Part shown: positions 14,855 through 34,880 of the stretch, piece after piece
How the letters are laid out: each line of letters starts with the position of its first letter
How positions within the stretch are numbered: the stretch's first letter is position 1
Assembly: GCA_031316155.1 (NCBI GenBank)
Contig: JALDRB010000005.1
Coordinates: 62,001-126,000 of the forward strand
Direction of reading: 5' to 3'
Source: Candidatus Scalindua sp.
Lineage (GTDB): Bacteria; Planctomycetota; Brocadiia; Brocadiales; Scalinduaceae
Length of the DNA stretch: 64,000 bases
Translations under genes and position numbers: made by a program
Notes under the pieces: generated by a model
What the model was told of the DNA's origin: nothing
Databases searched by the model: none
What the model saw: only the letters and a program-made list of their open reading frames with translations

Positions 14855-14920
14855 GCTTAACGTATTTTTCACCTGCTGGTGTGGAGCGCGGTGGAACACC
14901 AGTCAGGTGCAGAAAATTTT
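14855..14920 (-). repeat. weak attC-like hairpin
   Basis: On the minus strand an imperfect hairpin (CACCTGACTGGTGT against ACACCAGCAGGTG, with one unpaired A) is followed by GTTAAGC, a match to the integron core GTTRRRY. The left core box expected for a true attC is not evident. It lies downstream of the helicase relic, where the end of an integron cassette would be. The rest of 14679-15016 holds nothing else I recognise. Confidence 0.35.
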
Positions 14921-15016
14921 TCTGTGATTTTCTTATCATCAATATTGTCAATAAGGTTGTCCACGTAACAGTCGAGCCGCATGTTTTTGGGATAATCACG
15001 CCACATGCTTTTTGAT

Positions 15017-16735
15017 TTAGAGTTTCTCAAATTGAAATTTGCCACTCAGTATCGCTTGCTTGTTTGCCTGCAAAGAAGGTATTGAAACAAATAATCGTTT
15101 CTTAGCTCTACTTGCGGCAACATAATTTATCCTTTGTTCTTCAGCTTCTTTGTTTGTTACAGTCAAATCAGGGTTCAGTAAGAACGCCAAATCATCCTCT
15201 TCACGCAATATGAGCAATACGTTATCAAATTCATCTCCTTTGGCTTTATGAATTGTCTTATTCAAGCTTGTATCCTCTATAATTTTTACACATAACGCTA
15301 ATTGCTGATAGGTATGACCTTCATAAAAGGTTTTGGCCGCTCCACTTCTCAAATCAGAAATATCATTCTTGATATCGGCCTTAACGACTAAGTAGAACTC
15401 ATACAAAGATCCATTCTTGAACTCATCATACTTCTTGATAAGAGTTCGTATGTGTTTCATTGCTTCCCTTTTAACTTTGGTCTTGTCTATCTTAACCTTG
15501 AAGTCCTTTTCTAACTCTTTGATCGAATCCTTGAATTTACCTTCACGAGCTAACTCAGTAGCTTTGATACAAGCAATAACCACTTTGCTTCTGTATTTAT
15601 TACTGCTGCTTGGTTTGTCATTCTCCGACAATTCTTCAAATAGTTTGTCGTTCAATGATACTCCGCTAATCTCGTGTTTCATTGCATTTGAAGTAATATT
15701 GTCCCTCGATAAAGAGCATATTTTCTCACCGTTACATTGTTCTCTTGCCTTTTTGAGTGAATCGACCATTTCACCAACAATAATAGTTGGTCGAACACCA
15801 GTTTCATCGTTGTAGCTTATTTGCTGAATATCCGAACGTATTCCATTTAGGACTTGAATTATTTCATTGGTGCTTCGCCTATTCTCTGCCATTTGATAAT
15901 CGACCATCTCTGGTAGGTTGAAGGAAGTAAATTTTGCAGGTTCTGCACCCTGAAAGCCATAGATTGATTGTGCTGTATCTCCAATTATCCCAACAATAGT
16001 CTCACTCTATCCGATTTGATGTAGAATTGCAGCTTGGATCGGGTTTGTATCTTGGAACTCGTCAATAAAAAAGTAAGGGAATTTTGCTCTCAATACTTGC
16101 AAGATGAAGGGGAATTTATCTAATAATTGATAACCGAAGAATAGCACATCTTCGTGATGCAACACTCCTTTCTCCCAAGTCATTTTCTTATACTCATAGT
16201 ATGAATCATTTCTGATTGGATAGCCATCTACTAACATTGGATAATCAGGCTTGCATACCAAGTCCTTAGCGTTAAATTTCCATTTCGCCTTTCTGATTGC
16301 AGCTACTATTTCGTTATCACTTTTAATTCTTGGTTGCTTTGTTCTTGTCTTCCATTCGTTTAGAAATGAATAGTTAGAAAGTATTTCATCATCGTGTCCA
16401 TCCATTTCTTCTATATTCAGCCCATATTCAGTTGCAATGAATGATGCATATGGCTTAACGGTATGTTTATATAGAAAACTATGAATAGTTGATACTTCTA
16501 CTCGTTCGGCAGAAGTACCCAAACGAACCAGAATGGTTTCAACGGCTATATTCGTGTATGTGATGCAAGCTATTTTGCGAGTTTTGCCTAATCTATTAGA
16601 ACGATGCAAAACGTTTCTTATGTGTTCAACCATCCAATGCGTTTTGCCAGCACCAGGTCCTGCCGATACTCTGAAATTGCTCTCTATGTCAATGAGTGAG
16701 GAATCTGATGTAATTCGGTTTATTGGCATATCCAT
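15017..16735 (-). pseudogene. UvrD/Rep-like helicase (GajB-like) with in-frame TAG
   Basis: One reading frame of about 572 codons interrupted by a single amber codon at 16007-16009. Before it: Walker A GPGAGKT (residues 26-32) and Walker B FIDEFQDTN (near 224-231). After it, in the same frame: GDTAQSIYGFQG, ENRRST, HKAKGDEFDNVLLI and YVAASRAKKRLFVS, i.e. helicase motifs III-VI of superfamily 1A. It overlaps the end of an upstream OLD-family nuclease gene by 16 bp, the arrangement of Gabija anti-phage systems (GajA nuclease, GajB helicase). With the stop it would give two fragments, so it is probably inactive unless read through. Confidence 0.75.
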
Positions 16736-17642
16736 CCTAATGCGTTTTCGATGTAGGTGGGGACAATAAAATCTTGATAGCCATCTTGTCCTTTTATATT
16801 CAGATTGTTTTCCAAAGCGTAGGCGAGCTCAAACGCATTCTCACCTTTTTTAGCAACTGAGTTCAGATAACGCGAAGCAATAATTGCCGTTTTTTTATCG
16901 TTATCGTTGGCCCAGTTACATTCGCGTATTCCTTGCTTTATCTCTTTGTTCTTTTTGTTTAGATTGTCTTTGGTTCCGTCTGGGAGTATATTGAGAAGGT
17001 CATCAACTGGTTTATTATCCTTGAATGAACGCATCAAGTTTTTAATCTCAGATTGATTGCTCATTGATTCGGTAACCAGAAGCTCCAGTGTCGGGTTATG
17101 TATAACTAAGTCATACTCAAATGTTTTCCCTTTAATCTCATCTTGGCTGAAGAATTGAACATTTGTGTAGGCCATATATTGCTGCATTTTCTCAGTTGCG
17201 TTATCTTTGTACTCATAGATTGCTGTGTCTTGATTATGCTGAAATGGATAACATGTTGAGAAGTTTCCACCAGACATAGATCTTCTTACTGGGTCTCTGT
17301 CAGTAAGACACACTATCTTTTTGGAAATGGTATGAGGCTTTGTGTTGTTGAACAAATGCAGGAAGTGATCGAAGAACCTTCCTCCGACATTTATTACAGC
17401 AATGTGGTTATCTTCTAACGATTTACCCAAATATCTTGCAAGAATCGATAGAAGTAATTGCTCAGACAATCCTTCCACCAAAATGACTCTCTGTGCAAAA
17501 AGCATATCCGATTTGGTGGCATCCAAAAACCGTTGAACATATTTCTTGCTTTTGTCATCGGGGGGAAATACTTTTCCTGGATAACCGACTCAGTCTTCTT
17601 GAAGTTGCGAAAATTCTCTATGGCAATTTTGGCAATATACAT
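16720..17642 (-). pseudogene. OLD-family TOPRIM nuclease (GajA-like), internally deleted
   Basis: The N-terminus (MYIAKIAIENFRNFKKTE) is the start of an ABC-type ATPase, but after about 25 residues the sequence jumps, with a frame change near 17560-17580, to the end of that domain and the TOPRIM nuclease. FAQRVILVEGLSEQLL supplies the TOPRIM Glu and CLTDRDPV the Asp pair. Roughly 300 residues, including Walker B and the ABC signature, are missing compared with full-length OLD/GajA proteins. It precedes and overlaps the helicase relic. The first codons lie about 90 bp from the integron platform at 17735, so this pair occupies the first-cassette position. Confidence 0.75.
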
Positions 17643-17734
17643 AGTCTTGCCTCGGAAAGTTCTTTGGTTCCGCGTGCGGTTCTTGCATTATGGCACTATT
17701 CCTGTTTTTGGAAATAAAAAACATAACAGGAATT

Positions 17735-17945
17735 AAATATACTAATAGCCGTCTTATTTTACGGCTATTAGTATATTTAATACGCTTATAGGCTACTTAT
17801 TATACGGCTATATGGGCACATAATTAATAAAGTTTACTGACCGGTTGCTGATAGGAATAAGTAATTGTCAAAAAAATCAAATTTTATTATTAATCAGTAA
17901 AACTCTTCTGTCAAGAGGAAAAGAATTACGAAAAAAGAGGATTAA
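17735..17945 (-). other. integron platform (attI-like region), copy 1
   Basis: Starts with a perfect inverted repeat, 18 bp arms (17735-17752 and 17761-17778) around the loop CTTATTTT, followed by repeated ACGGC words and an AT-rich stretch up to the intI start codon. The same region occurs at 34311-34530 and 21085-21215. On the minus strand, alignment of the three copies puts TAATTCNTG^TTANGT at the junction with the cargo, which fits the G^TT integron crossover. The site assignment is inferred from position between intI and leftward-reading cargo. Confidence 0.6.
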
Positions 17946-17948
17946 TCT

Positions 17949-18581
17949 ATGGATATACTAAAACCGATTTGGTTTTCGGTATTACTGGAAACCAAATCTT
18001 GGTGAAGGTATCCCTGGACAAAAGGCGTCGAGGACCTTACTCGCTCCGTTTTTTCTCGGATTTTATCCGAAAACCATTATGAGATGAGTATAAGCCGAAA
18101 ATTTTTGATCAGGTGCGTGACGCAATTCGGGTAAAGCACTATAGCATGAGAAAAGAAACAGTTAGAAAAGGTAAGAATCTTGCATGAACAGGATTTGAAA
18201 GAGGGATTTGGCAAAGTTTATCTGCCTTTTGCACTTGCAAAAAAATATCCAAATGCTGAAAGGGAATTCGCCTGGCAATATGTGTTTCCAGCTTCCAATC
18301 GCTTTATTGACCCGAGGTCAGGAATAGAACGCAGGCACCACATTTATGAAACTGTTCTACAAAAGGCCGTAAAAGCTTCTGTTCGAGCTGCTGGGATCAA
18401 TAAACCTGCAAGTTGTCACACCTTCCGTCATAGCTTTGCAACTCATTTGCTTGAGGATGGTTACGATATTCGTACAGTCCAGGAATTACTCGGGCATAAA
18501 GATGTGAGCACTACTATGATTTATACCCATGTCTTACATAAAGGTGGGAAAGGGGTAAAAAGTCCACTGGATGGAATTTGA
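17949..18581 (+). pseudogene. integron integrase intI relic, copy 1
   Basis: Tyrosine recombinase of the IntI type. The ATG at 17949 follows a GAGGATTAATCT leader. Codons 2-3 are split by MITE-A (17956-18090). The frame then resumes as [22 protein letters not shown], and about 190 residues are missing before [17 protein letters not shown] in another frame. The C-terminal third is intact to the stop at 18581: [16 protein letters not shown] (the IntI-specific insert region), [26 protein letters not shown] (catalytic H, R, H and Y). Three lesions make it certainly non-functional. The remaining open frame from 18180 could at most express a 133 aa fragment. Confidence 0.88.
17956..18090. mobile_element. 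MITE-A copy 2, inserted in intI
   Basis: 135 bp, TACT...AGTA ends with TA on both sides (954-955 and 18091-18092 in the local sequence). Removing it and one TA rebuilds ATG GAT AAG CCG AAA, a natural intI N-terminus. Confidence 0.88.
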
Positions 18582-18622
18582 TACTTACATAATATGATAA
18601 TGTATAATTCTACAATATTTTA

Positions 18623-18892
18623 TCAAGAAATTAGTTTTTCTTTTAGTATTTTGCTTGCAAGATTTTTTAAAGGTTTGTTTATTTTTTTTGCATATGCATT
18701 TAATGCCATGAAACTTTCTCTATCAATTTCTATTTCAAAGTGTCGTTCTTTTATGTCAAACGTCATGTTCGTTAGTTCAAGATATTCCTCATAATCACTC
18801 GCACTGTGAGCATCCCAGAATTCTCCTGCCTTTTCTTCTGATTCAAACTTCTCTGGTAACGGATCTATTCTCTTTTTAACTTTGTTTGTCAT
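18623..18892 (-). CDS. CopG-family antitoxin-like protein
   Basis: An 89 aa protein. The DPLPEKFESEEKAGEFWDAH segment followed by a DIKERHFEIEIDRESF strand and a basic C-terminal helix (AKKINKPLKNLASKILKEK) matches the CopG-type antitoxin family usually paired with BrnT-like or other small toxins. AAGGAG lies 5 nt upstream of the ATG. No BrnT-like toxin remains beside it, so it looks like an orphan antitoxin. A fragment of its 5' end, with leader, is present at 34807-34880 in the second intI region. Confidence 0.75.
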   Translation of the reverse strand: MTNKVKKRIDPLPEKFESEEKAGEFWDAHSASDYEEYLELTNMTFDIKERHFEIEIDRESFMALNAYAKKINKPLKNLASKILKEKLIS

Positions 18893-18936
18893 AATATCTC
18901 CTTAAATATGGTATATTCATAAGGATTGAGTATAAA

Positions 18937-19005
18937 ATGACAACACTTACCGCAAGTCATGCGAGAACAAAGCTCTACAAATTATTAGACAAAGTAGCAT
19001 CATCA
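18937..19005 (+). pseudogene. Phd/YefM antitoxin N-terminal fragment
   Basis: ATG at 18937 opens TTLTASHARTKLYKLLDKVA, which is the usual N-terminus of Phd/YefM-family antitoxins (compare T-A-S-x-A-R-x-x-L-Y-x-L-L-D). After about 23 codons the similarity ends and the frame runs into the 3' end of hicA on the other strand. It has a weak leader (AAGGATTGAG). This is a broken remnant of another toxin-antitoxin locus. Confidence 0.6.
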
Positions 19006-19026
19006 CCATCACCTTTCCATCACAAT

Positions 19027-19251
19027 TTATCTTTGTTTCATAAATTTATCCACTGTTAGGCCAATATCTTTTATTATCTGTCTTAATAAGATTGGTGAAA
19101 TATCTCTTCCTTGATGAAAAGGGACAGTTGTACATCTTCCATCAGAATGACGGTATTGTTTATGAGAACCTCTTTGTCGAATTTCTGAAAATCCTAATTT
19201 CTTTAGAATTGTTATAACTTCACGAGGTTTTAAAGCAGGATATTTCCCCAT
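19027..19251 (-). CDS. hicA: HicA-family mRNA interferase toxin
   Basis: A 74 aa double-stranded-RNA-binding-fold toxin that cleaves mRNA when not bound by HicB. Motifs: LKPREVITILKKLGF, then RQRGSHKQYRHSDGR with the catalytic His, and TTVPFHQGRDISPILLRQIIKDIGL. The gene is intact and starts 2 nt after the hicB stop. The order hicB-hicA is reversed from the name order but common. A TA pair can stabilise a cassette array that is no longer mobile. Confidence 0.9.
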   Translation of the reverse strand: MGKYPALKPREVITILKKLGFSEIRQRGSHKQYRHSDGRCTTVPFHQGRDISPILLRQIIKDIGLTVDKFMKQR

Positions 19252-19253
19252 AT

Positions 19254-19463
19254 TTAGGCAACCATAATGTTTTGTGTACCAATAAATTCAGCTTCCAAAT
19301 CAGGTTCACCATCTTCTCGTAACATTTCGATCACTTCTTTCATATTCTGTTTTAACTCATCAAGTGTCTTTCCTTGAGAATGTGCTCCAGGAAAACCAGG
19401 TACATATCCAACATAAAGTCCTGTATCAGAACAACGTTCAATAACAGCAGTATATGTTTTCAT
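19254..19463 (-). CDS. hicB: HicB-family antitoxin
   Basis: A 69 aa protein with the partial RNase-H fold of HicB: an N-terminal strand TYTAVIERCSDTGLYVGYVPGFPGAHSQGKTLDEL and a helix LKQNMKEVIEML. It lacks an added DNA-binding domain, so it is of the short class. An AAAGGAGAGAAAAGG leader precedes the ATG at 19463. It neutralises the HicA encoded directly downstream. It probably shares a promoter in the 19464-19560 region, but no specific site was recognised. Confidence 0.88.
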   Translation of the reverse strand: MKTYTAVIERCSDTGLYVGYVPGFPGAHSQGKTLDELKQNMKEVIEMLREDGEPDLEAEFIGTQNIMVA

Positions 19464-19671
19464 AACCTTTTCTCTCCTTTAAATAAGAATAATCATTGAT
19501 TTTATCATAACCTAAATCTTTATTTCTTGTAAAACGAATACCTCATTCTATTTCTAATTATACATTGAACGGTTTCAATTACAATGGCATATTAACTTGA
19601 ACTGGAATGATGATGAACACCTCACGCCCACTATTTCATCTAGCTTATCGCTGCTGATATATAATATTTTC

Positions 19672-19773
19672 TTAATTTTTGCGCTGAAGGCGCAAGTTCA
19701 AAAGTCCGTAAAAACTGCCATGGACGTCCGTTTTAGGAATTTTGGAAAAGTTAGCCAGGATGGCTTACGTTGT
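19672..19773. repeat. palindromic repeat D, copy 2
   Basis: Diverged second copy of the element at 6312-6446, with the same GCGCTGAAGGCGC hairpin and a weakened main stem ending TTTTAGGAATTTTGGAAAAG. It lies in the gene-poor stretch 19464-20195, which otherwise contains only repeat B and CCCTGT-element remnants. Confidence 0.65.
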
Positions 19774-19925
19774 TTTTAACCTTTACTTCTGAAAGTGCAG
19801 GTTGGCAACTAAGAATGCTCCCTTTCAGAGGTATTTTACTATCGATATCGTAAAGGACAACTTCCATTTCTCTCCACTGATCTGATTCACCAGATCATCC
19901 ATAAGACACATCCTACGACTATATC

Positions 19926-20037
19926 CTAACCTGGACAAGCCAGAACCAAACAGGGGGTAATAAATTATAAATCTCAATTTACAGAATCCAAACAAATTTC
20001 AAATTACAATGTTCGAATTATCAACCCAGTTTGCTCG
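19926..20037. repeat. repeat B, truncated copy
   Basis: Starts with CCTAACCTGGACAAGCC and continues through ATAAATCTCAATTTACAG to TCAACCCAGTTTGCTCG, in the same orientation as the 47528 copy. It is broken off by the CCCTGT-type element at 20038. Here the TTAATA/AATTA junction is uninterrupted, serving as an empty site for the MITE-A insertion at 47567. Confidence 0.7.
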
Positions 20038-20120
20038 CCCTGTTAAATATATAGCTTGGCATTTCCATTTGTCTTTATAAAAAATGATACTTTTGAAAGT
20101 TCTTGGAATGACATCATCCT
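20038..20120. repeat. CCCTGT-type element, truncated
   Basis: Opposite-strand relative of the 99 bp element at 49331-49429. It starts CCCTGTTAAATATATA and shares TTTGTCTTTATAAAAAATG, but the far terminal repeat is missing. Confidence 0.6.
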
Positions 20121-20195
20121 AATCTATTGACAATACATAATTATTTCGTTAAAAATAAGGACAGAATGGACGCTGTTGTCAGTGATTTTACTTAC

Positions 20196-20430
20196 TAATG
20201 GATAACCATTAATCCCTCTTTTTTGGCTGCCTTATTCAGCATAATGTCAAAACAGGCAAAGAATATATCAGTCTCCTTAGAATTTGTAAAAACAAGAGCC
20301 GAAGCCAGATGTCTTGCATTAAACCCTCTTAATGGATGCCTGTTGAATAAGTCCTCCATAACTGAGTTTAAATCATTATCCAGAGGAGCCTGGATTAGAT
20401 TCTCATAATTATCCTTGAATTTTTTTTACG
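20196..20430 (-). pseudogene. PIN-domain (VapC-like) toxin, C-terminal fragment
   Basis: An open minus-strand frame of about 75 codons without a start, ending VIH at 20196. The segment FNARHLASALVFTNSKETDIFFACFDIMLNKAAKKEGLMV follows the PIN-domain pattern in which R-H-L-A-S-A-L precedes the last acidic residue and an AA-x-x-x-G-L-x-V tail. The N-terminal half with the first catalytic Asp is absent. It sits between hicBA and a GC-rich cargo gene, adding to the toxin-antitoxin debris here. Confidence 0.6.
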
Positions 20431-20520
20431 GCGCAGGCCATCGGAAACTATGAAACTCCTCTTCATCTTCACATTAGCCTGGGTGTTAAGTAACAATTCG
20501 AGCCCAATGATAATTCATAT

Positions 20521-21051
20521 CTAGCCTGATTTGGATGCTTTATCATCGGGGAAACGAAGATACTTACCGTAGTGCTCGCGTTCACACGCCTCACAGAAGC
20601 CGTGACTGAACTCTGCGGCTGAGCGATGACTGACATATATCTCGATCTGCTCCCAAACCCCGTCCGGTCGGCGAATTTTCTTGCAAAATGAGCAGATCGG
20701 CAGGAGTCCTTCGAGAACCTGAACGCGCTCAGCTAACATCCGTTTTTGTTGCGCAACCTTGGCAATCAGTACTGCCAACCCGACCAGCACAGCCACCCGA
20801 ATACCCGCGTTCAAGGCTTCAGCCCAAGCGGGAGTCAACTCCTGCTCCAGGACGACTAAAATCCCAACGCGACATCCGACCAGTGTGACCGCAAACCCGA
20901 TTCCGGCATTGCGACCTAAATACCAACCGGCGAGGCCAACAGGAATGACGAACACAACCGGAAACATGATGTATGTACCTGTTGCGATGTCGAGTAAAAC
21001 AACACCGACCGACAACACTACCAACACGCTCCACCAACGTACCCGGGTCAT
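20521..21051 (-). CDS. GC-rich membrane protein with zinc-ribbon-like sensor tail
   Basis: A 176 aa protein with several hydrophobic segments in residues 7-95 (a MASE-like or DUF4118-like bundle) and a short coiled coil, then LLPICSFCKKIRRPDGVWEQIEIYVSHRSAAEFSHGFCEAC. This CxxC...CxxC tail is found at the end of many bacterial sensor kinases and diguanylate cyclases. No enzymatic domain is present. Base composition and codon use are clearly more GC-rich than the neighbours, which indicates recent transfer. It lies immediately left of the third platform copy, in first-cassette position. I cannot assign a function. Confidence 0.7.
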   Translation of the reverse strand: MTRVRWWSVLVVLSVGVVLLDIATGTYIMFPVVFVIPVGLAGWYLGRNAGIGFAVTLVGCRVGILVVLEQELTPAWAEALNAGIRVAVLVGLAVLIAKVAQQKRMLAERVQVLEGLLPICSFCKKIRRPDGVWEQIEIYVSHRSAAEFSHGFCEACEREHYGKYLRFPDDKASKSG

Positions 21052-21084
21052 CGATGATCTTCTCCCTCCGCCGAATATAAATTA

Positions 21085-21215
21085 ACCGTGCTAATCGCCG
21101 TCTTATTTTACGGTTGACTCATTATACGGCCATTTGGGGCACATAATAAAGTTCGCTGCTAAAATACCGATACTATAATCATTATTAAAAAATGTCAAGT
21201 TTTTTGGTGAATCGT
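21085..21215 (-). other. integron platform-like region, copy 3
   Basis: Diverged copy of the region next to the intI relics: GCCGTCTTATTTTACGG, then ATACGGCCATTTGGGGCACATAAT and AATGTCAAGTTTTTTGG. The outer hairpin arm is lost. No intI sequence follows to the right, and the gap to the next gene at 21407 is otherwise empty. It borders the GC-rich gene as the other copies border their cargo. Confidence 0.5.
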
Positions 21216-21406
21216 GTAAAAACCGTTCTGAAGATAAGCAACATTGATAAAAAAATGGAGGGTGGAAATGGTGCGATAACTGACGTCAAGTCTGAATGAT
21301 TAATTTAAACCAGATGGAGAAAATTATTACAGGGTTTAACTATGTCAGATTGTTTGCTATATTTTAAAACCTTAAACAATGTGCTCAAAGCAAAGTAACA
21401 AAGAAT

Positions 21407-21994: not shown

Positions 21995-22267
21995 TTAAAA
22001 TTCTCCTTGAAAAACCAAAACACCTTTAAAAAAATTACACCCGCTTACTTATTGGAGTGCAGTATATTTCAGCTTTGCTCCCCTAGTAATTCTATCTCTG
22101 TTTCGCGAGAATATCATAAGTAAAAAGGGACCACCATTATAGTTTACATGGCGGCCCCCTAAACTCATTCGTAAAGATGCAACTCAACAAACCAAGTTTT
22201 CACAAATTGATAACTACTTTAATGTATTCAGTGGAAAACAGCCTGACTTTCTCCACAATAAATTACC

Positions 22268-23293
22268 TTACAGAGCCTTCATAAACTCAACAAGGTCCTG
22301 CAACTCCTGTTTCGTCAAATGAGATGTAACACCGTGCATATCTTTCGTTGTCACCGTGTTGTCAACCGTATTCATCAGTGTTTCAGCGCTGCCATCATGG
22401 AAATAGGTTCCTGATGCGTAGATATCCCTCAATGTCGGGGTATCAAACTCCTTAACCAGATCAAGTCCGATAATCGGCACATCGTAATCCTCACCATAAG
22501 GATCTACACCCGCTTCCAGAGCACTCGTGTTGAATACTGCTCCAGGTGTTGTCCTGAAACCGTCTGCTCCGATTCGCCCTGTTCCGACATCATGTGTCTG
22601 AGCATCGCTAAACAACGCTCTTGGATTATCAGGATTACCCGGATGACACTCCACACAACCAACCTTTGGATCGCTGAATATCTTCCAACCCCTCTTTTGA
22701 GCTTCCGTCAAAGAACCATCTTCATTTCTGAATGGGCTTCCCGTAAACTCTAAAGATCTGATATATGCAATCAGGGCCTCTAATCTCTCAGGTGAGAAAT
22801 TCTCACTCCTGAACACGAATCCAGGGTCACGTCCGCATACCCTGTCAATCGACGATGTAGCGCCTACAATCTCATCAGGATGACCCGTAAATCCTTCATG
22901 CCTGAACGGGGGAAGATACCTTCCGCCACGGATATACTTCGTATTCTTCCAGCTACCCCAGCCTTCATCGCCAAGGTCCCAGATCAAACCGGTTGTCTGC
23001 CCTCTTTCATAATGGCAGCTGGCGCATGAGTACTCTCCCTGCAGCGTCCACGAATTCTCATTAAACTGAAACTGCCCATACCTTACCAACTCACTCTTGT
23101 AAGGTGAATGCTTAACCCTGTAATGTACCTCTGGTACAGTCAACGGCTCACCTCTCTCGAGCGGCTCCCATTCCGGTCCTGTCTGTATGGTCGCTATAAC
23201 TTGAGCCTCTCCTGCATCGGCAACGTTTACCGCTGCTGTCAGACAGAAAAGGGACAGGGTAGCAATTAAGCTCAACACAAACATCTTCTTCAT
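22268..23293 (-). CDS. di-heme cytochrome c peroxidase/MauG-family protein
   Basis: A 341 aa exported protein (signal peptide to about residue 28) with two CXXCH heme-attachment motifs, CASCHYE near residue 91 and CVECHPG near residue 215. The second half has GADGFRTTPGAVFNTSALE and the TPTLRDIYASGTYFHDGSAETL segment typical of bacterial cytochrome c peroxidase/MauG proteins. It would act in the periplasm (or anammoxosome-side compartment in an anammox cell) reducing peroxide or modifying a protein partner. It follows the beta-propeller gene by 70 bp, both with AGGAGG ribosome sites, so they are probably co-expressed. Confidence 0.88.
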   Translation of the reverse strand: MKKMFVLSLIATLSLFCLTAAVNVADAGEAQVIATIQTGPEWEPLERGEPLTVPEVHYRVKHSPYKSELVRYGQFQFNENSWTLQGEYSCASCHYERGQTTGLIWDLGDEGWGSWKNTKYIRGGRYLPPFRHEGFTGHPDEIVGATSSIDRVCGRDPGFVFRSENFSPERLEALIAYIRSLEFTGSPFRNEDGSLTEAQKRGWKIFSDPKVGCVECHPGNPDNPRALFSDAQTHDVGTGRIGADGFRTTPGAVFNTSALEAGVDPYGEDYDVPIIGLDLVKEFDTPTLRDIYASGTYFHDGSAETLMNTVDNTVTTKDMHGVTSHLTKQELQDLVEFMKAL

Positions 23294-23363
23294 TACCTAC
23301 CTCCTAAAAAACTATTAATATGAATAAACACACCCAATTCCTCACTACTCATTCCACTCAAAA

Positions 23364-24500
23364 TCAATCAAGCGGAGTCCTGATCACAGATACGTTATTT
23401 GAAAAATAATTTGCTGCATAGCAAATCTTGCCATCAGGTGACAGCGCAACTGAGCTTGGCCCGAGGCCTACATTTACCCTCTTAACCAGATAATCTATCA
23501 TAACCGTCAGATCATCTTTCATATCATCCAGCTCTTCCTGTGAGCTCGCCTGAATAATCTGTGTCATCTTCGCCAGGTCAAGAATCGTAACCCTGTGCAT
23601 ACCTCTCACACCGATGTACACATATTTACCTTCAGGGCAGATTGCTATACCATAAGGATTCCCATCGTAATTGTTATGCTCATCCAACGGGAATTGCGCT
23701 ACCTTTCCACCTGGTTTCGTCTCTACCATAGCAACGTTGTTCGAGAATATCTGAGCATTCTCTGCCTCACAAACCGGCAACCAGTTCTTCGGCTGCTCCA
23801 TGGTGAAGAGAACATACTGACCATCAGGCGTATACTCGACACCCCTGAAATTAGCGCTACCGTGAATAACCCTTGTCTCCTTAACCCTTCCTGATGCAAG
23901 GTCTACAAAATCAACACATCTATTGATCTTACCCGTTGTATCAAGGACAACAGCAGCTGTCTTCCCGTCAGGAGAAATCGCTATATCCCTTGGACCATAA
24001 TCAGATGTCCTTATCTCCCCGATCTTGTTATTCATGGCTGTATCTATGATGTCAACGGTGTTCCACATACTGCCTGAACAGCACACATATGCTTTAGAAC
24101 CGTCATTCGACAGTTTAATACTACATGGCCAGTCTCCTACCTTGATGGTCTTGATAACTGCCTTATTACCAATATCAATCACAGAAACACTGTCACTCTC
24201 AGCGTTACAAACATACAGTGTCCTGCCGTCCCTGGTGCTTACAGTAGCCTCAGGCTGCACCTGAACCGGTACTTCACCGACAACTTTTCTTGATCGAGTA
24301 TCAACAAAAGTCACGCTGTGACCTGACTGATTGGCAAGAAACAACATACTGCCATCAGCAGAAACAGACACGTGAAACGGAGAAGGATGCTCAGTTCTCA
24401 CCCTCGTACCCTGTATAAAACCGGCACCAGCACTCTGCACTAACGCCAAACCGACCATACCGGCTCCGAGGATACTCCACAACAAACTCCTTTTTTTCAT
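23364..24500 (-). CDS. YVTN-family beta-propeller protein, exported
   Basis: A 378 aa protein with a signal peptide (hydrophobic residues ~7-27) and several 40-residue YVTN-type blades, each with a pattern like DGRTLYVCNAESDSVSVIDIGN or DGSKAYVCCSGS...VDIIDT. The fold is a seven-bladed propeller that commonly binds partner proteins or cofactors. Pairing with a di-heme MauG/peroxidase-like cytochrome recalls quinohemoprotein and methanethiol-oxidase-type loci, but no direct homology to those enzymes is claimed. A very strong AGGAGG is 6 nt from the ATG, suggesting abundant product. Confidence 0.85.
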   Translation of the reverse strand: MKKRSLLWSILGAGMVGLALVQSAGAGFIQGTRVRTEHPSPFHVSVSADGSMLFLANQSGHSVTFVDTRSRKVVGEVPVQVQPEATVSTRDGRTLYVCNAESDSVSVIDIGNKAVIKTIKVGDWPCSIKLSNDGSKAYVCCSGSMWNTVDIIDTAMNNKIGEIRTSDYGPRDIAISPDGKTAAVVLDTTGKINRCVDFVDLASGRVKETRVIHGSANFRGVEYTPDGQYVLFTMEQPKNWLPVCEAENAQIFSNNVAMVETKPGGKVAQFPLDEHNNYDGNPYGIAICPEGKYVYIGVRGMHRVTILDLAKMTQIIQASSQEELDDMKDDLTVMIDYLVKRVNVGLGPSSVALSPDGKICYAANYFSNNVSVIRTPLD

Positions 24501-24960
24501 TCTTCACCTCCTAAAAGTTAACAAAAACTAAATTACTTTTCACGTGGAACCATCCAACTACAGCAAACAAAGAACACATAAAGCAATAAAATCACCTGAT
24601 AATAATATCAATAGTGTCATTGTTATCACGTTATTATCATAAATGCCTGCTTTTTCACCTCATCTTTAAACAGACTAACAATCCTAAGAATTGAAATGAA
24701 TTTCTCTTTTCTTTTATTTATTCGCAATAGACATACCATATGATTATTAACTTTTGATAACATCGTTAAATCTCATTTTTTCATAGATTTACATACACCA
24801 TAAATAAACATCTCTCCCTATTCCGAATAGCAGAAAAAGCAAGTGAATGACCGAAATACAAAACCCAGGCACAGAATTGCAGGGAATATTATATTTAAAC
24901 CTCATTATATTAAAGAGTTATGATGGTTGACCGTATTTGGTCATGGTATGAAATTTTTGG
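24501..24960. other. regulatory gap with inverted repeat
   Basis: 460 bp upstream of the beta-propeller operon and downstream of the response regulator. It contains TGATAATAA (24597-24605) facing TTATTATCA (24631-24639), a possible operator, and TGACC-N6-GGTCA near 24928. I did not find a clear -24/-12 sigma54 promoter, although the neighbouring regulator should need one at its targets. Confidence 0.4.
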
Positions 24961-28637: not shown

Positions 28638-28773
28638 TGCTTCGAAAATTTAAATTCAATCCGGATTCCATTCAAAGTTATAAAAGAATGGTATTGTAGC
28701 ATTTGAAATTTAGCAATACAATAATACGGTTTCAGCGTAGCTTGAAGTGAAAAGGATGCGGGAAGAGGATGGG

Positions 28774-28870
28774 TAAAGATTCCATAACAGCTATTAAGAC
28801 GATAGAGTATTCCGAATTTTGGATGGAAGCAACCTGTATGATAACGGTAAAAGATTTCTCTGTTCATCCA
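28774..28870 (+). pseudogene. fumarase 3'-end fragment
   Basis: ATAACAGCTATTAAGACGAT and the following ~60 bases closely match the 3' part of the intact fumarase gene (14490-14580), encoding the equivalents of I-K-T-I-E-Y-S-E and M-I-T-V-K-D-F. The similarity stops just before the Y1-transposon end at 28879. It shows that a segment of fumarase was once copied here or that a second gene was lost. Confidence 0.75.
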
Positions 28871-28878
28871 CCGAAATC

Positions 28879-29923
28879 CAGGGTCAGACCTTGAAAGCAG
28901 AATGCGTAATCTCCTCTAATTTCCTTCTAAAGGCTTTACTTGTTTTACTTTGCTTATTTATACGTATTGCTGCTTTATTTACTGCACTTATACTTACTCC
29001 AAACATCTCTCCTATTACTTTATTTGATAGCCCTGTATACGTCTTCAATATATACATACTTACATCTCTGGCTTCAAATGGTATATGCCTTTTTCTTTGT
29101 AGTAGTGTGGCCCTGTCTATTTTATAATTATGTATTATCTCTTCTATTACCTTTTCGATCACACCATCATCACTTATCCTCTTTTTTTGTGGTAAGTCAG
29201 CATCTTCTTTCTCCGTTCGGTCTATAAACTTCCTTTGCACCCACTCCACAAACTTATCGCTTCCCAAAATCATTCCATACTTTATGTCTTCAAGGAAGTC
29301 ATTTTCTCTGCCGGATGCTTTCCGGATCAATTTTCTATATTCCCTCCCGGATTCTTGTTTGTCACTACATATCCCCTCTAAAACAGCTTCGCTGTTTACC
29401 CACTTATTTCTTTTTCTGACGTTAACATAATCATGATAGCTACTCCAATTATACTCTCTCAGCTTTTCAACCATGCCGGCTCGTATGGGATTCAAATGTA
29501 TATATAAACTTAAAATGTGCCAGTAAGATTCATTTTCGACAAGAACGCTCTTATATCTTCCCTGAAAAAGATGTCCACAGCGATTATGATTGCGATTGTA
29601 ATAAATGCTATAGGCGGTCTGTATCCATTGCATGGCCCTTGAAAGATTTGCATCATTCGTTCTTAAAAGAATATGGTAATGATTAGCCATCAAGACAAAT
29701 GCAAATATATCTAAATTAAACTTTTCTCTGGCACTTGCCATATATTCCAAAAATCTTGAATAATCGTCATTGGTAAGAAAAATCTCTCCTCTGCCTACAC
29801 CTCTCGACATGACGTGATAAATTGCACCTTCATATTGTATTCTCCAGGGCCGTGCCATAATCCATATTGTTAATCTAATACTCATGCTTGTCAAGCATAT
29901 TCTATATTCAAGGTCTGACCCTG
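28879..29923. mobile_element. Y1-transposase element with 17 bp inverted ends
   Basis: Bounded by perfect inverted repeats, CAGGGTCAGACCTTGAA at 28879-28895 and its reverse complement at 29907-29923. It encodes one HUH transposase. The stop codon of the transposase (28884-28886) is part of the left repeat. HUH elements usually lack true terminal inverted repeats, so these ends may be REP-type hairpin halves. No target duplication is visible. Confidence 0.8.
28884..29858 (-). CDS. IS200-like/REP-associated tyrosine transposase (Y1, HUH)
   Basis: Single-strand DNA transposase of about 324 aa. The start at 29858 gives the usual N-terminus MARPWRIQYEGAIYHVMSRG; the reading frame is open further upstream into the inverted repeat. 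The HUH motif is ANHYHILL near residue 75, the catalytic tyrosine lies in WIQTAYSIYYNR, and LNPIRAGMV is typical. An extra C-terminal region ends in a DnaA-like helix-turn-helix (GLSNKVIGEMFGVSISAVNKA). It appears intact. It lies just downstream of cassette gene 29926-30405 and may have replaced its attC. Confidence 0.9.
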   Translation of the reverse strand: MARPWRIQYEGAIYHVMSRGVGRGEIFLTNDDYSRFLEYMASAREKFNLDIFAFVLMANHYHILLRTNDANLSRAMQWIQTAYSIYYNRNHNRCGHLFQGRYKSVLVENESYWHILSLYIHLNPIRAGMVEKLREYNWSSYHDYVNVRKRNKWVNSEAVLEGICSDKQESGREYRKLIRKASGRENDFLEDIKYGMILGSDKFVEWVQRKFIDRTEKEDADLPQKKRISDDGVIEKVIEEIIHNYKIDRATLLQRKRHIPFEARDVSMYILKTYTGLSNKVIGEMFGVSISAVNKAAIRINKQSKTSKAFRRKLEEITHSAFKV

Positions 29924-29925
29924 CA

Positions 29926-30405
29926 TCATTGAATATCGTTGAGATCTCTCTTGAAATATGAATCATCAATTGCGGATACTAGTTTGACAATGCTCGGTTC
30001 GTGAACCGCAGCGAAAGATGGTTTTTGTTTTATATTGGCAAAGACATCCTCCAAAATACCAAGTTGATAATTACTTGCCCAAATAACACGTCTTGTATGA
30101 CACAGGTCCCATCCGTAAACACATCTAAATGCTTCCTCAAATGAATAACCTACATTATCTAAATCTGGTATTAACCCAACTCCTATTATTTTTTTTCCAA
30201 ACCGCATTAAAACCCGGTCACCAGGATTAGGACTAAAAGTAAAATTATGAATTTGACTCCCTTCAGAGTTGGAAATTCCATCGTGATATTTATATTCTCG
30301 AGCATCGCCAGGTTTGCTTCCACCAAGAATCATGACGTCATAATCGAAAAAAATGCTGCTATAGTTTCTTCCCGAGTCTCCCGTAGCAATTTGCCAAACT
30401 GTCAT
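29926..30405 (-). CDS. cassette protein of unknown function
   Basis: A 159 aa protein I cannot assign. The N-terminus TVWQIATGDSGRNYSSIFFDYDVMILGG with W-x-I-A-T-G-D-x-G-R resembles the start of PUA/EVE-like or restriction-associated DNA-binding domains; later it has GDRVLMRFGKKIIGVGLI and a W-D-L-C-H segment. It begins 21 nt after the attC at 30427-30498 with CGGAGG before the ATG, so it is the third gene of the cassette array. Its stop lies 3 bp from the Y1 element; the attC expected after it is missing, so the end may be truncated. Confidence 0.6.
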   Translation of the reverse strand: MTVWQIATGDSGRNYSSIFFDYDVMILGGSKPGDAREYKYHDGISNSEGSQIHNFTFSPNPGDRVLMRFGKKIIGVGLIPDLDNVGYSFEEAFRCVYGWDLCHTRRVIWASNYQLGILEDVFANIKQKPSFAAVHEPSIVKLVSAIDDSYFKRDLNDIQ

Positions 30406-30426
30406 TTAATCCTCCGTTGTTTTTTA

Positions 30427-30498
30427 ACCTAACGCCAGCATAACCAGTCGGTGAATAGCGGTAGCGTAACACCGGTCTGAGTGCATGCATTGTTGGCA
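30427..30498 (-). repeat. attC site of the HNH cassette
   Basis: On the minus strand it runs TGCCAAC ... GTTAGGT (core GTTRRRY) over 72 bp, with an imperfect stem between (ACCGGTG with CACCGAC, AATGC/GCTGG outer arms). It begins 10 nt after the stop of the HNH gene and is followed by the next gene's leader. Orientation matches a cassette array read leftwards from the platform at 34.3 kb. Confidence 0.7.
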
Positions 30499-30507
30499 TT
30501 TAGCACA

Positions 30508-31539
30508 TTATTTTAATGATGCTTTATATGTTTTTTCATTAATAGTAACGAAATAAGTAGCTTTTAGTTTTTTTTGATTAGTTCGCTTACCATAATCAAA
30601 AAGTTTATGACAATTGGGACACAGAACTAGAATATTATCAAGCCTGTCCTTGCCACCTTCAGCTTTTGGCTTAATATGGCAAGCTTCAATATAATACCCT
30701 CTATTGGCTTTAAGAATGGTTGTCGAACAGAATTGGCATTTATAGTCCCTATATTTCTTTATCTGAACCATTAAAAAATTATGCCTTTTATAAGTCTTTC
30801 CATTGATTGTGATTCTTTCTGATTTGTCATTCACACATTCAATGAGTTTTTTATACAATTCTTCCTTATTTATTTCTTCTGAGTCAACTTCAACACTATT
30901 TTCAATTTCATGTTGTTCCAATTCATTTTCAAAATTTTCTATCTGCAAATAATCTGATATTAACTCCTGCCCTTGATAAACAGCCACAATAAAATGATTC
31001 AATGCATCTATTTTGAAGTAGTTTTGAAGTGTTGAAAAATCATTTAGTAAACTATCTTGTTATTTTTTGACTAGCTCATAATTTGCCCAGTTTTTTGACG
31101 AAGAAATTTTGCATCCAAGCTTGTTTAACGCCTTTAATGTTTTGTTATTCATAATCGGGTATTTTTTATAATCAACCCGATTAAGAAATATCGTTGCTAT
31201 ACCCACTCCAAATCCTGGATAATCTTCAAGTTGTAAGAACCAATCTTTAAGTGAGAATCTGGCTTGAAACGGTTTTAAAACGAATTTCCTAAACCTTTCT
31301 ATGTCCTTTCCTACCGTATTGCGAAATCTGTTCTTAGTTCGGTCTCCACCTGATTGTACTCGTCCACCTTCACTTACGAAACCATAAAAGAAATCAACAA
31401 ACTCTTTATTCGATAAAGAAGCCAATCGAGAATCAGTAATGGTATTCTGATAGAAATCCATATTTGAACTATGTGGATCATTAATCCACCAATCCTCAAA
31501 TTCATTTATAATTTTTTCTAGATATAGTTTTCTATCCAT
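30508..31539 (-). pseudogene. HNH endonuclease cassette gene with in-frame TAA
   Basis: One frame of about 343 codons with an ochre stop at 31060-31062 about 160 codons in. The N-terminal part contains LEDYPGFGVGIATIFLNRVDYKKYPIMNNKTLKALNKLG, like helical regions in McrB-type and HNH-linked proteins. The C-terminal part has two zinc-binding pairs and an HNH core (CQFCSTTIL, EACHIKPKAEGGKDRLDNILVLCPNCHKLFDYG). Flanking attC sites define a cassette of about 1.1 kb. Without read-through, a TTG at 31002 might restart the nuclease half. Restriction or anti-phage activity is plausible but unproven. Confidence 0.7.
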
Positions 31540-31582
31540 TTTATTCTTTGTTTCTTAACTGCAATGTGTTTCATTGTATGAA

Positions 31583-31642
31583 TGCCAACGATGCTAATCA
31601 ACCGCGCGGCTTTTTGCGTCGGTTGAATTAGCCATGTTAGGT
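31583..31642 (-). repeat. attC site of the kinase cassette
   Basis: On the minus strand ACCTAAC ... GTTGGCA over 60 bp, with the inner arms TGGCTAATTCAACCG and CGGTTGATTAGCA separated by GCAAAAAGCCGCG; one arm carries an extra base, as in typical attC. It starts 1 nt after the kinase stop codon and ends 43 bp before the next cassette gene. This is the clearest attC in the window. Confidence 0.8.
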
Positions 31643-32316
31643 TTTAAAATGGAATTTCATCATCAATCGGGCTTTCAGCATACCGGGTTATCGAGTCGAG
31701 TCGTGTATGGAGGTTTGCCATTATTATTCGTCTCTTTTCTTGAGATGAAGATTTAAATAAACGCAAAAACTCCCTTACGGCCCATACAGAAAATCCATCC
31801 TTTTTATAATAATAGGAACCGCTTATAAAACACCTTGTAATTAATGCTGAATCGGGTGCTGTTTCTTCCAGCATAATACTTCGGTATACGTCCTCAAGCT
31901 GATTTTGAATCCAATTACAATCATCTATATACTTGGAACCATTTTCTATTTTTGTAATATGCTTATACATGAAATCTGCAAAATGGCGATAATCCGACTG
32001 TTCTTCCTCACTAAAGTCTATCTCGAAAAACCTATTATTGTTAATTTCCTTTTCAATATCAAAAAAACTTTCAATTCTTGAATCAGGATTACGATTGCAC
32101 ATACGGTTAAGGATGCTTTTGTACTCAAAAAATTCAATACCCTTTTCATGAATCATCTTTTCGAATAGTTTTCCAACAAAATACACTTCGGTTCTGAAAT
32201 CATACAAGATATCTTTGAACTCTTCTGGAGGTTCACACCACAAATTCAAACTAATACTTTTATCAAAATCCTCTGAGCTTTCGATCCTCTTTCCAAAACC
32301 TAAATCAATTATTTTT

Positions 32317-33819
32317 GACTCTTTATCAGAATTTGTGGGTAAAGATAAGGAGAAACATTGATTTATTTAAAGGAAAGCACTCCAAAAGGAATATTTTTTA
32401 TTCCCATCTCCGCCACCCACCCCTCTTTTGGGTGAGAGTGGGCGGTCCGAAGGGAATAAAAAAAAAGCTTTCGTTAATATTTCACAAAGAATTTCAAAAA
32501 GAAGCATTGTTGCTACAATTGTTAAAATAGGGTTTCTAACAACCATATAATTAACAATTGCAAGTAAACAACAATGCTCATAAAAACATTACTCAATAGA
32601 TGTTATCCTGTCAAGGGATTCATCTACGGCAAAGTTATTTTAAATAATACCAGGATTACGGTCAAAGTAAAAGAACGCAAAGGATCACAAGGCCTATGTA
32701 GTCAGTGCAAGAAAGCTGCTCCAACTTATGATCATCTAAAAGAACGATGTTTTCGTTTTATCCCTTTGTGGGGGTACCTGGTTATGTTGACTTACAGACC
32801 TCGGACGTAAGCTGCCCCCAACATGGGGTAACCGTAGAACATATTCTGTGGGCTAATGGAAAGAGTCCTATCTGCACGCCATTTAAGATATTTTTATCTC
32901 ATTGGGCAAAATATCTTTCCTGGCAAGAAGTGGCCAGGCAATTTCGTGTTTCATGGAAAAACGTATTTGAATCGGTAGAACATGTTGTTGAATATGGATT
33001 AAAGCATCGGAACTTAGATAATATCAACGCAATTGGTATTGATGAGATACAATATTTAAAAGGACACAAATATCTGACATTGGTTTATCAAATAGACTCT
33101 GCCTGTAAAAGATTGTTATTTGTAGGCCGGAGCAGATCAGCGAAAACTTTGTTGCGATTCTTTATTGGTTTTGGCAAAGAACGTTCTAAGCAATTAAAGG
33201 CAATTTGCAGTGATCTTTGGAAACCATATTTAAAGGTTGTAAACGTAAAGCTCCAGAGGCTATTCATATTCTCGATCGATTTCATGTGATGAAATATCTC
33301 AATGATGCAGTTGATGAAACACGCAGAGCAGAGACGGCACAATTAAAACGAGATGGCTATGAACCGATCCTTGAGAAATCTCGTTGGTGTTTATTAAAGA
33401 ACAAAAGAAACCAGAAGACATCACAATTAGCAAAACTACGTGAACTTGTTCAATATAATCTAAAGACAGTACGTTGTTATTTACTCAAAGAAGCGTTTCA
33501 ACATTTCTGGACGTACAAAACACGCTATGGTGCCGAGAGGTTCTTAAGAACCTGGACAACGAGGGCTATGAGATCAAGGTTGCCTGAAATAAAGAAAGTG
33601 GCCAAACGTTTACGTAAGCACCAGGAGCTTTTATTGAACTATTTTTCTGTCAAAGAGCGTCTATCTAATAGTGTTGTTGAAGGTTTTAATCTTAAAGCTA
33701 AACTGACTATGAGAAGATCTTTTGGTTTTCGTACTTTCAAATCAATAGAAGTTGCTTTATATCATACGCTTGGAAAGTTACCAGAGCCTCCAATTACCCA
33801 CAGATTCTACTGAGGAGGC
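32317..33819 (+). mobile_element. ISL3-family insertion sequence
   Basis: A 1503 bp element. Ends begin GACTCTTT (left) and GCCTCCTC (right, complement) with a shared inner GTGGGTAA block. Both sides carry the 8 bp duplication TTATTTTT (32309-32316 and 33820-33827), the size expected for ISL3 elements. It is inserted in the kinase gene. A palindrome in the leader (32410-32460) precedes the transposase. Confidence 0.9.
32574..33813 (+). pseudogene. ISL3-family transposase, two frameshifts
   Basis: DDE transposase of about 410 codons read in three frames: 32574 to ~32808, ~32808 to ~33240, and ~33240 to 33813. Each change equals one missing base (near CGGACGTAAGC and near GGTTGTAAACG). Family features: zinc-finger-like CSQCKKAAP at the N-terminus, AIGIDEIQYLKG, CSDLWKPYLKVV, ILDRFHVMKYLNDAVDETRR and SNSVVEGFNLKAKLTMRRSFGFRTF. 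The positions do not look like a slippery-site programmed frameshift. The element is probably immobile now, although the errors could be technical. Confidence 0.85.
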
Positions 33820-34310
33820 TTATTTTTACATTATCTTCATTTGTAACCATTATGTTTTGAGGACGAATATCTCGATGAAGAATATTATTTGCCTCAAGGT
33901 ATCGAAAACCATTTATAACTTGTAGAAATATTTCGTTAATCTTTTCAGGTACATTTTTGAGATAATCTTCGATATCAGAACCATCAACAAATTCCATCAG
34001 GATATAACCTGTAAACTGATCTGGATAAAGATAGTAATTAAAGACGCGAACCACATTAGTGTGATGAATTTGGTGAAGAAGCTTTATTTCACGAACGAAG
34101 TTTAAAAATAATTCTTGTCGATGTGTCTCTGAGAAAGGGCAGTATTTTTTACAAACAAAATGCTCATTAATCATGTCATCATGTAGAAGGACCGTTTTAC
34201 CGCAAGCACCTTGTCCTAATTCCTTTACGAGTTTGTAATCACGCTTTCGTATAAACTCAATTAATTTTTCTTGCATTGCTGTCTGTCTGTTTTAGTTTTT
34301 AATTTATCCC

Positions 34311-34530
34311 AAACCTAACATGAATTAGGCGTACTAACGGCCGTCTTATTTTACGGCTGTTAGTACATATAATACGTTTACAGGTCACTGATTATACTGC
34401 CATTTGGGCATATAATCAGTAAAGTTTATTGACCATTTGCCTATATGCTAAATAATTGTCAAAGAAACCAAGTATTATTAATTAATAATGATTGAATACC
34501 CTTCTGTCAAGATGGAAAAAGAGGATTAAT
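34311..34530 (-). other. integron platform (attI-like region), copy 2
   Basis: Second copy of the hairpin region: TACTAACGGCCGT / ACGGCTGTTAGTA around CTTATTTT, with a compensating G-T pair relative to copy 1. On the minus strand the junction with the kinase cassette reads CATG^TTAGGT, a full match to the GTTRRRY core. It lies between the leftward cassettes and the rightward intI relic. Confidence 0.65.
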
Positions 34531-34532
34531 CT

Positions 34533-34880
34533 ATGGTTATACTAAAACTGATTTGGTTTTAGATTTTTCTAAAAACCAAAGCCTGGTTGCAGTTATCCCC
34601 GGACAAAAGGCGCCGAGGACTTTACTCGCTCCGTTTTTTCTCGGATTTTATCCGAAAACCATTATGAGATGAGTATAAACCGAAAATTTTTGATCAGGTG
34701 CGTGACGCAATTCGGGTAAAGCACTATAGCATGAGAAAAGAAACAGTTAGAAAAGGTAAGAATCTTGCATGAACAGGATTTGAAAGAGGGATTTGGCAAA
34801 GTTTATCTGCCTTTTCTTCCGATTCAAACTTCTCTGGTAACGGATCTATTCTTTTTTAACTTTGTTTGTCATAATATCTC
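34533..34880 (+). pseudogene. integron integrase intI relic, copy 2
   Basis: Same structure as copy 1: ATG at 34533, MITE-A after codon 2, KPKIFDQVRDAIRVKHYS, then the same internal deletion. It continues only to VYLPF and joins, at the direct repeat CTGCCTTTT (34807-34815), to sequence matching the 5' end of the copG gene (18835-18892, other strand). All catalytic C-terminal residues are gone. It is derived from the copy-1 locus by a further deletion. Confidence 0.85.
34540..34675. mobile_element. MITE-A copy 3, inserted in intI copy 2
   Basis: 136 bp, TACT...AGTA with TA on both sides. It is in the same codon position as copy 2 and differs from it at several internal bases (a weaker left hairpin). 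Confidence 0.85.

What the first reader, a model, noticed from the sequence alone, without database searches (positions are those of the whole stretch)
14855..34880. A dead, partly duplicated chromosomal integron
Seen: two intI relics reading rightwards (17949, 34533), three copies of a hairpin-bearing platform left of them or in the equivalent place (17735, 34311, 21085), cargo genes all reading leftwards from the platforms, and attC sites directly after two cargo stop codons (30427-30498, 31583-31642). Known: this is the layout of sedentary chromosomal integrons. Inferred: the array once carried defence and toxin-antitoxin cassettes and became fixed when intI was lost. An integron in such a lineage with a self-similar, duplicated platform is unusual.
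Basis: partly seen in the sequence, partly recalled or inferred. Interest (0 to 1): 0.82.

Follow-up and report, generated by a model that had tools for sequence, protein, structure and literature searches.

The report
Scattered integron docking sites, integrase dead
This stretch holds three docking sites of a gene-capture system (an integron), two of them beside the same broken integrase gene, and they belong to a family of such sites scattered through related genomes in which captured genes were likely still being swapped by an integrase working from elsewhere.

Summary
IntI homology is at 18092-18581 and 34677-34815 (closest solved relative IntI4, 2a3v, 4.7e-48); 17953-18092 is a 140-bp genomic repeat. 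The three 'platforms' are attI sites of a dispersed family: 13 matches in this genome, matches in 28 of 62 genomes of the order. 44 of 64 copies read GTT at the crossover; 34 of 63 carry attC on the array side; none shows an intact intI. New: at 4 of 5 orthologous sites compared between two congeners, both flanks and the intI breakpoint are shared but cassettes differ (one site is empty) and the junctions are att cores; the fifth differs without clean junctions. Arrays there turned over after the local integrase died, most likely through an integrase in trans. 'Fixed when intI was lost' and 'unusual lineage' are not supported.

The parts
34314..34479 (-). attI platform 2 (crossover core GTTAGGT at 34319-34313 on the array strand)
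   Evidence: Profile match 34317-34479, E 5.4e-41 (the window copies are in the profile); core; 28 of 62 order genomes match the probe
17722..17888 (-). attI platform 1 (core GTTATGT)
   Evidence: Profile match 17725-17888, E 3.5e-32; 84% identical to the platform beside fumarase in the congener G045
21071..21209 (-). attI platform 3, decayed core ATTCGGC, no intI beside it
   Evidence: Profile match 21075-21209, E 1.8e-19; core
18092..18581 (+). intI relic 1: N-terminal piece 18092-18157, internal deletion, C-terminal piece 18168-18581
   Evidence: TIGR02249 234 bits; 2a3v 4.7e-48; coordinates
34677..34815 (+). intI relic 2: same deletion as relic 1, then cut by a further 604-bp deletion
   Evidence: 97.9% identity over 140 nt; coordinates
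31583..31642 (-). attC of cassette 1 (split kinase gene)
   Evidence: Covariance model E 4.8e-6; R'' is the exact complement of the cassette start
30427..30498 (-). attC of cassette 2 (HNH gene)
   Evidence: Covariance model E 0.63 only; R'' is the exact complement of the cassette start
14855..14925 (-). attC after gajB, platform 1 array; decayed R''
   Evidence: Covariance model E 5.4e-5; R'' ACAGAAA against ACATAAC expected
15017..17642 (-). Gabija gajB and gajA in cassette position, frames broken (assembly error not excluded)
   Evidence: PADLOC GajA 1.7e-94; GajB 1.5e-108 and 5.7e-91
33794..34276 (-). N-terminal half of a Ser/Thr kinase gene of cassette 1
   Evidence: Pkinase 7.9e-26; PADLOC mad6 4.9e-29
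31644..32249 (-). Rest of cassette 1 gene beyond the ISL3 insertion (reading by eye)
   Evidence: Frames; no Pfam or PADLOC match
30508..31539 (-). Cassette 2: ORF of unknown family (31060-31539) and HNH endonuclease gene (30508-31002)
   Evidence: HNH_2 5.8e-9; no match for the other ORF
29926..30405 (-). ORF in third cassette position of array 2; no attC found after it
20521..21051 (-). ORF starting 25 nt from the platform 3 core, 53.7% GC against 39.0% for the window; possible cassette gene, no attC found
17953..18092 (+). 140-bp dispersed repeat inserted between attI and intI (also 34537-34677)
   Evidence: 38 further full-length copies listed

Best explanation
The window holds three attI docking sites of an integron family, two of them beside intI relics that share one deletion and followed by attC-bounded cassettes, and in this family an integrase acting from elsewhere in the genome most likely kept exchanging cassettes after the local intI had died. 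Shown: attI, attC and intI remnants in the canonical divergent layout; a dispersed family (13 matches in this genome, 28 of 62 genomes of the order); at four orthologous sites of two related species, different cassettes although the intI breakpoint and both flanks are shared. Inferred: that an IntI in trans did the exchange, which IntI it was, and that the same held for the window's own sites. The assembly held (92.2% complete) shows no intact IntI, so the window's own arrays may be frozen now.
For: Model attC hits at platform loci: 48 of 50 on the array side and array strand, 36 of the 37 that were not training sites (stretches reach about 4 kb on the array side and 2.5 kb on the other). Own-core test: 12 of 64 against 0-2 in 20 permutations (one of the 12, L181, looks doubtful). 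44 of 64 copies read GTT at the crossover with variable bases beyond. Orthologous pairs L159/L176, L157/L173, L177/L185, L158/L168: both flanks shared, inserts different, far junctions at att cores, intI breakpoints identical, one junction in four species. At the L177/L185 locus a third species, G014, has a third array ending at the same core. PMC12444791 (passage read) states that integrase-less cassette arrays can be mobilised in trans by a functional IntI.
Against: No intact IntI lies beside this attI in any fetched copy, so no cognate enzyme is known; the intact IntIs of G015 and G018 belong to other branches than the relic. 20 of 64 copies do not read GTT at the crossover. A fifth orthologous pair, L171/L174, has different arrays but its far junction is not an att core and no shared intI breakpoint was shown. 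L191/L192 (99.8% identical) and L178/L195 share their array side. L155/L194 was not followed to the far flank. The window's own genome gives no direct evidence for trans action.
Confidence: 0.74

Rival explanations
1. Cassette differences at dead sites came by homologous recombination: arrays were imported from strains that still had an intact intI at the same locus, with crossovers in attI and in the far flank; no trans action is needed.
For: attI and both flanks give 100 bp or more of homology; a working integrase with this attI is not known today.
Against: It must be invoked at four loci, each with one end in or at attI; one site is empty and three species hold three states at it. No copy with intact intI was seen among those fetched.
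Confidence: 0.17
2. A plain dead sedentary chromosomal integron: intI died, the array froze, and the extra platforms arose by ordinary duplication and rearrangement.
For: All IntI-like loci seen in this genome are broken; relics 1 and 2 share one deletion, the repeat and the copG flank, and a 3' fumarase piece repeats at 28766-28858. In Xanthomonas the same lesion usually goes with the same array (PMC12444791, passage read).
Against: attI parts of the two copies differ more than the rest; platforms are spread over many loci and genomes; arrays differ at orthologous dead sites in relatives.
Confidence: 0.07
3. The platform is an independent mobile hairpin repeat that merely sits near some intI genes.
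For: It is short, repeated and hairpin-bearing; 41 of 63 copies show no IntI match at 1e-4 (some right flanks are cut by contig ends).
Against: 22 of 63 have IntI matches, 17 of them starting at IntI residue 1-4 and 191-258 bp from the aligned start; the left end is most often the GTT core; attC hits lie on one side and strand.
Confidence: 0.02

Closest known systems
Sedentary chromosomal integrons with decayed intI (Xanthomonas, PMC12444791; pseudo-integrons, PMC2426708; passages read)
   Same: intI with internal deletions or stops, attI, attC, cassettes reading away from attI, fixed chromosomal neighbour gene (fumarase here, ilvD there).
   Different: Several attI copies per genome; in relatives the arrays differ at sites with the same intI lesion, whereas in Xanthomonas the same lesion usually goes with identical arrays (as told in PMC12444791).
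[quoted passage not shown] passages read)
   Same: Cassettes with attC and no intact integrase beside them; 19 of 34 attC-bearing platform copies show no IntI match.
   Different: A conserved attI heads the array, often with the 5' end of intI, which the CALIN definition does not require.
Intact integrons of the same order (G033, G036, G052)
   Same: IntI C-terminal parts 68-89% identical to the relic; attC sites found by the same model near those of G033, G036 and G052.
   Different: Their upstream regions do not match the platform profile. A similar start (AACAT..ATTA) is seen by eye; of six tested only L038 (G052) beats all 300 shuffles.

Membership tests
Integron | intI gene of the IntI family with its additional domain | tested here: met
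   Relic only: TIGR02249 234 bits over 171-314; aligned to 2a3v through residues 189-318
Integron | complete, open intI | tested here: not met
   Internal deletion in both copies; no match over the cut-off in this genome
Integron | attI beside intI, with G^TT crossover | tested here: met
   two of the window's three copies read GTT
Integron | attC sites with R''/R' and L''/L' pairing after cassette genes | tested here: met
   (4.8e-6, 5.4e-5, 0.63); exact own-core complement in two
Integron | cassette promoter Pc | not tested
   TATAAT-like words are conserved in the platform but no promoter test was made
CALIN | two or more attC sites with no intact integrase nearby | tested here: met
   Array 2 has two sites (one weak); both intI copies are broken
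Xer-type or other non-IntI tyrosine recombinase | closest relatives outside IntI | tested here: not met
   Three Xer-type proteins of this genome 29-38% over parts; 43 IntI-type rows 46-89%
Distributed integron served in trans | cassette change at attI sites whose intI was already dead | tested here: met
   4 of 5 orthologous pairs in relatives with shared breakpoint and att-core junctions; not shown for the window itself
Distributed integron served in trans | an integrase that recombines the orphan attI | not testable with these tools
   Needs a recombination assay

The most novel reading that the evidence does not exclude
A distributed integron: genomes of this order carry a network of up to a dozen scattered attI sites, each a former integron that lost its own integrase yet stayed in use, so that one integrase in trans loads and unloads cassettes, defence genes among them, at many chromosomal places.
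Probability: 0.5. Interest if true: 0.82.

Novelty: new variant of a known kind. Interest (0 to 1): 0.7.

Why it matters
Integrons are usually described as one integrase, one attI and one array, and a dead integrase is taken to freeze the array. A dispersed attI family whose sites kept turning over after the local integrase was lost separates the two, and would explain how cassettes come to sit at many chromosomal loci behind a ready entry site. It also shows that integrons are common in an order for which the paper listings searched here gave no study of integron structure, only a Kuenenia intI named in passing. It gives an immediate test: does an IntI of the order recombine the orphan attI?

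Tried and rejected
A tandem duplication of one integron was dropped as the whole story: attI parts are 79.5% identical while the intI part is 97.9% and the copG flank 96-97%, and copy 1's attI is closer to that of G045 (84%) than to copy 2. Hydrazine synthase genes as cassettes: rejected, no attC hit there and a second locus with the same gene order as in G045 lies on contig C26. Rfam at gathering scores: nothing. First attC scans without bulges found too little; the bulge-tolerant scan gave 116 strand hits against 2 in block-shuffled sequence at threshold 9, some of the 116 being attI itself. Pair counts on the attC alignment are strong but partly circular, because sites were chosen for arm pairing. 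An exact platform pattern in viral contigs: no match. Outside the order the attI probe matches 1 of 274 genomes, weakly and in part, against 13 of the 20 order genomes listed; two candidates per genome were scored. The named-genome scan gave IntI from many phyla and no order member; used only for the tree. Resemblance of intact IntIs' upstream regions to the platform was mostly not significant. Empty chromosomal sites: at the L173 locus the right flank is found without platform in 8 of 11 congeners, with it in 2, not found in G014; at the L176 locus without in 6, with in 4 (attI mostly lost in G014), not found in G024; right-flank homology begins about 320-400 bp from the crossover; the left side was comparable only at the L176 locus in G017, 226 bp beyond the last attC. 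Rows dropped: of 71 BLAST pieces those under 50 nt were left out (63 kept, plus platform 3); L211 and L212 gave none. Not every match was fetched (60 stretches). Alignment A1 was replaced by A2 after two sites proved reversed and one end ragged.
Full report
WHAT IS THERE. The window is contig C22:62001-126000 of a 4.06-Mb, 26-contig assembly, 92.2% complete. Two intI relics read rightwards. Relic 1 has an N-terminal piece at 18092-18157 and a C-terminal piece at 18168-18581. Its 133-aa ORF matches TIGR02249 171-314 with 234 bits and IntI4 (2a3v) at 4.7e-48. Relic 2 (34677-34815) has the same internal deletion and is cut again by a 604-bp deletion.

THE ATTC SITES. I built a covariance model from 21 attC sites of relatives, leaving the window out. 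In 64 kb, both strands, it returns three matches at E up to 10: 31583-31642 (4.8e-6), 14855-14925 (5.4e-5), 30427-30498 (0.63), all on the minus strand. The two cassettes of platform 2 obey cassette logic: cassette 1 starts GTTAGGT at attI and its R'' is ACCTAAC; cassette 2 starts GTTGGCA and its R'' is TGCCAAC; both are exact complements. The Gabija pair lies between platform 1 and the site at 14855-14925, whose R'' is decayed.

THE PLATFORM IS AN ATTI FAMILY. A 226-base platform probe finds 13 places in this genome at E up to 4.2e-4, three of them under 50 nt, and places in 28 of 62 genomes of the order. At phylum level 13 of the 20 order genomes listed match against 1 weak partial match among 274 others. 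I fetched 60 stretches, not every match, and aligned 63 copies, two of them from the window. With platform 3 counted, 44 of 64 read GTT at the crossover on the array strand and the bases beyond vary as cassette starts do; 20 do not (decayed, truncated or shifted left ends). IntI homology follows on the right in 22 of 63 (tblastn 1e-4); 17 of these start at IntI residue 1-4, 191-258 bp from the aligned start. No complete uninterrupted intI is seen beside any of the 63; the fullest are L166 with stops and L161, which has a TGA and is cut by its contig end. Of the model's attC hits at platform loci 48 of 50 are on the array side and array strand, and 36 of the 37 that were not training sites. 34 of 63 copies have at least one such attC (the window was not in that scan; it is 36), 19 of the 34 with no IntI match. 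The own-core test gave 12 of 64 against 0-2 in 20 permutations.

NOT AN UNUSUAL LINEAGE. 26 of 62 order genomes have a TIGR02249 match over the curated cut-off. A published tree already contains a Kuenenia stuttgartiensis intI (PMC3607928, passages read). In this genome the four IntI-like loci are all broken: C22 twice, C26 in pieces, C1 lacking the first half of the domain. In the tree of C-terminal pieces the relic groups with the IntI of G036 (short alignment, weakly resolved, and one long-branched Xer-type row falls among IntI rows).

TURNOVER AFTER THE LOCAL INTEGRASE DIED. Comparing right flanks showed orthologous platforms in G015 and G018, two genomes of one genus. For four pairs I fetched up to 20 kb on the array side. 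In all four the far flanks reconverge at 90-96% identity, so the loci are orthologous, and the stretch between attI and that point differs: counted from the fetched end inside attI, 1692 against 5804 nt (L159/L176), 1164 against 914 (L157/L173), 8167 against 169, an empty attI (L177/L185), 1358 against 711 (L158/L168). The reconvergence points are att cores: GTTAGA, GTTATGC, GTTAGAC (GTAGAC in the empty copy), GTTAGCA. The intI remnants have the same breakpoints within each pair, and at the L159/L176 locus one deletion junction is shared by four species, G014, G015, G016 and G018. G016 has a cassette there with its own attC (1.1e-5) and no DNA match to the other two inserts, though its attI is decayed; G014 has lost most of attI. 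At the L177/L185 locus G014 is a third species, with a third array ending at the same core, but with a further deletion on the intI side. A fifth pair, L171/L174, found on checking, also has shared flanks and different arrays, but its far junction is not an att core and no shared intI breakpoint is shown, so I do not count it as support. Two pairs share their array side: L191/L192, 99.8% identical, and L178/L195. At the L173 locus the right flank occurs without platform in 8 of 11 congeners, at the L176 locus in 6; insertion and loss cannot be told apart everywhere, but at the L176 locus G017 shows both flanks joined.

Reading: in these relatives intI was lost before the species split, yet cassettes changed afterwards with att-core boundaries. 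An integrase in trans is the simplest agent; homologous import of arrays is the main rival. In Xanthomonas the same lesion usually goes with the same array (as told in PMC12444791, passage read), which makes the contrast notable.

BACK TO THE WINDOW. Platform 1 matches the fumarase-linked platform of the congener G045, which has its own, different, intI lesion. Platforms 1 and 2 share the repeat, the intI deletion and the copG flank, but their attI parts and their cassettes differ, and a 3' fumarase piece lies at 28766-28858 left of array 2. This fits a locus duplication with later recombination and separate cassette histories; the order of events is not settled. Platform 3 has no intI; the ORF beside it starts 25 nt from the core and has 53.7% GC.

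NOVELTY. Dead integrons, several intI per genome and integrase-less arrays are known (PMC2426708, PMC12444791, PMC8618304; passages read). In the listings of searches I saw no report of a dispersed attI family, or of array turnover at orthologous sites with one intI lesion, nor a study of integron structure in anammox bacteria; one search was swamped by unrelated words and is weak, listings show only the top rows, and the library lacks most subscription papers. That integron arrays carry defence systems I recall from recent literature; one search did not bring it up directly.

For that I lowered the overall interest from 0.72 to 0.70 and left the odds of the trans reading as they were.

Noticed in passing
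window 22265-24526; L105 10073-12316: hzsC-hzsB has a 98% identical copy on contig C26 (2228 of 2269 bases, 32 gap positions, mostly single-base indels), frame-broken there, which may be assembly error; an ORF in the place of hzsA is seen only at C26 (by position, not searched).
   Followed up: partly
window 17953-18092 and 34537-34677: A ~140-bp repeat with TATAC/GTATA-like ends and at least 38 more full-length copies in the genome: MITE-like.
   Followed up: partly
window 28766-28858: A 3' piece of the fumarase gene (14484-14572, 87%) repeated far from it.
   Followed up: partly
window 32530-33815: An ISL3-type transposase gene (1.6e-48), frame-broken, splits the kinase cassette.
   Followed up: no
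window 18623-19463: CopG-type antitoxin, HicA and HicB genes lie behind intI relic 1, outside the cassette array.
   Followed up: no
window 28884-29969: Y1 (IS200-like) transposase ORF with a DnaA C-terminal-like HTH.
   Followed up: no
L088 5383-5517, L089 8550-8684, L175 2724-2858: The same ~135-nt hairpin element with GTTCAAC/GTT ends in three genomes, scored as attC-like but long and odd.
   Followed up: no
L154, L163, L168, L328 at the attI left end: The same short stretch (GTTGAACGAAACCGCTTCGCGGTAGCATTTC type) stands at attI in four genomes, perhaps a widespread small cassette or an insertion.
   Followed up: no
L102 (G000:C1:355001-375000), 16030-18792: A second integron type in this genome: truncated IntI of the long class with four attC model hits beside it.
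   Followed up: partly
window 35753-37360: 535-aa ORF that by eye joins a PEP mutase-like half to a nucleotidyltransferase-like half, beside relic 2.
   Followed up: no
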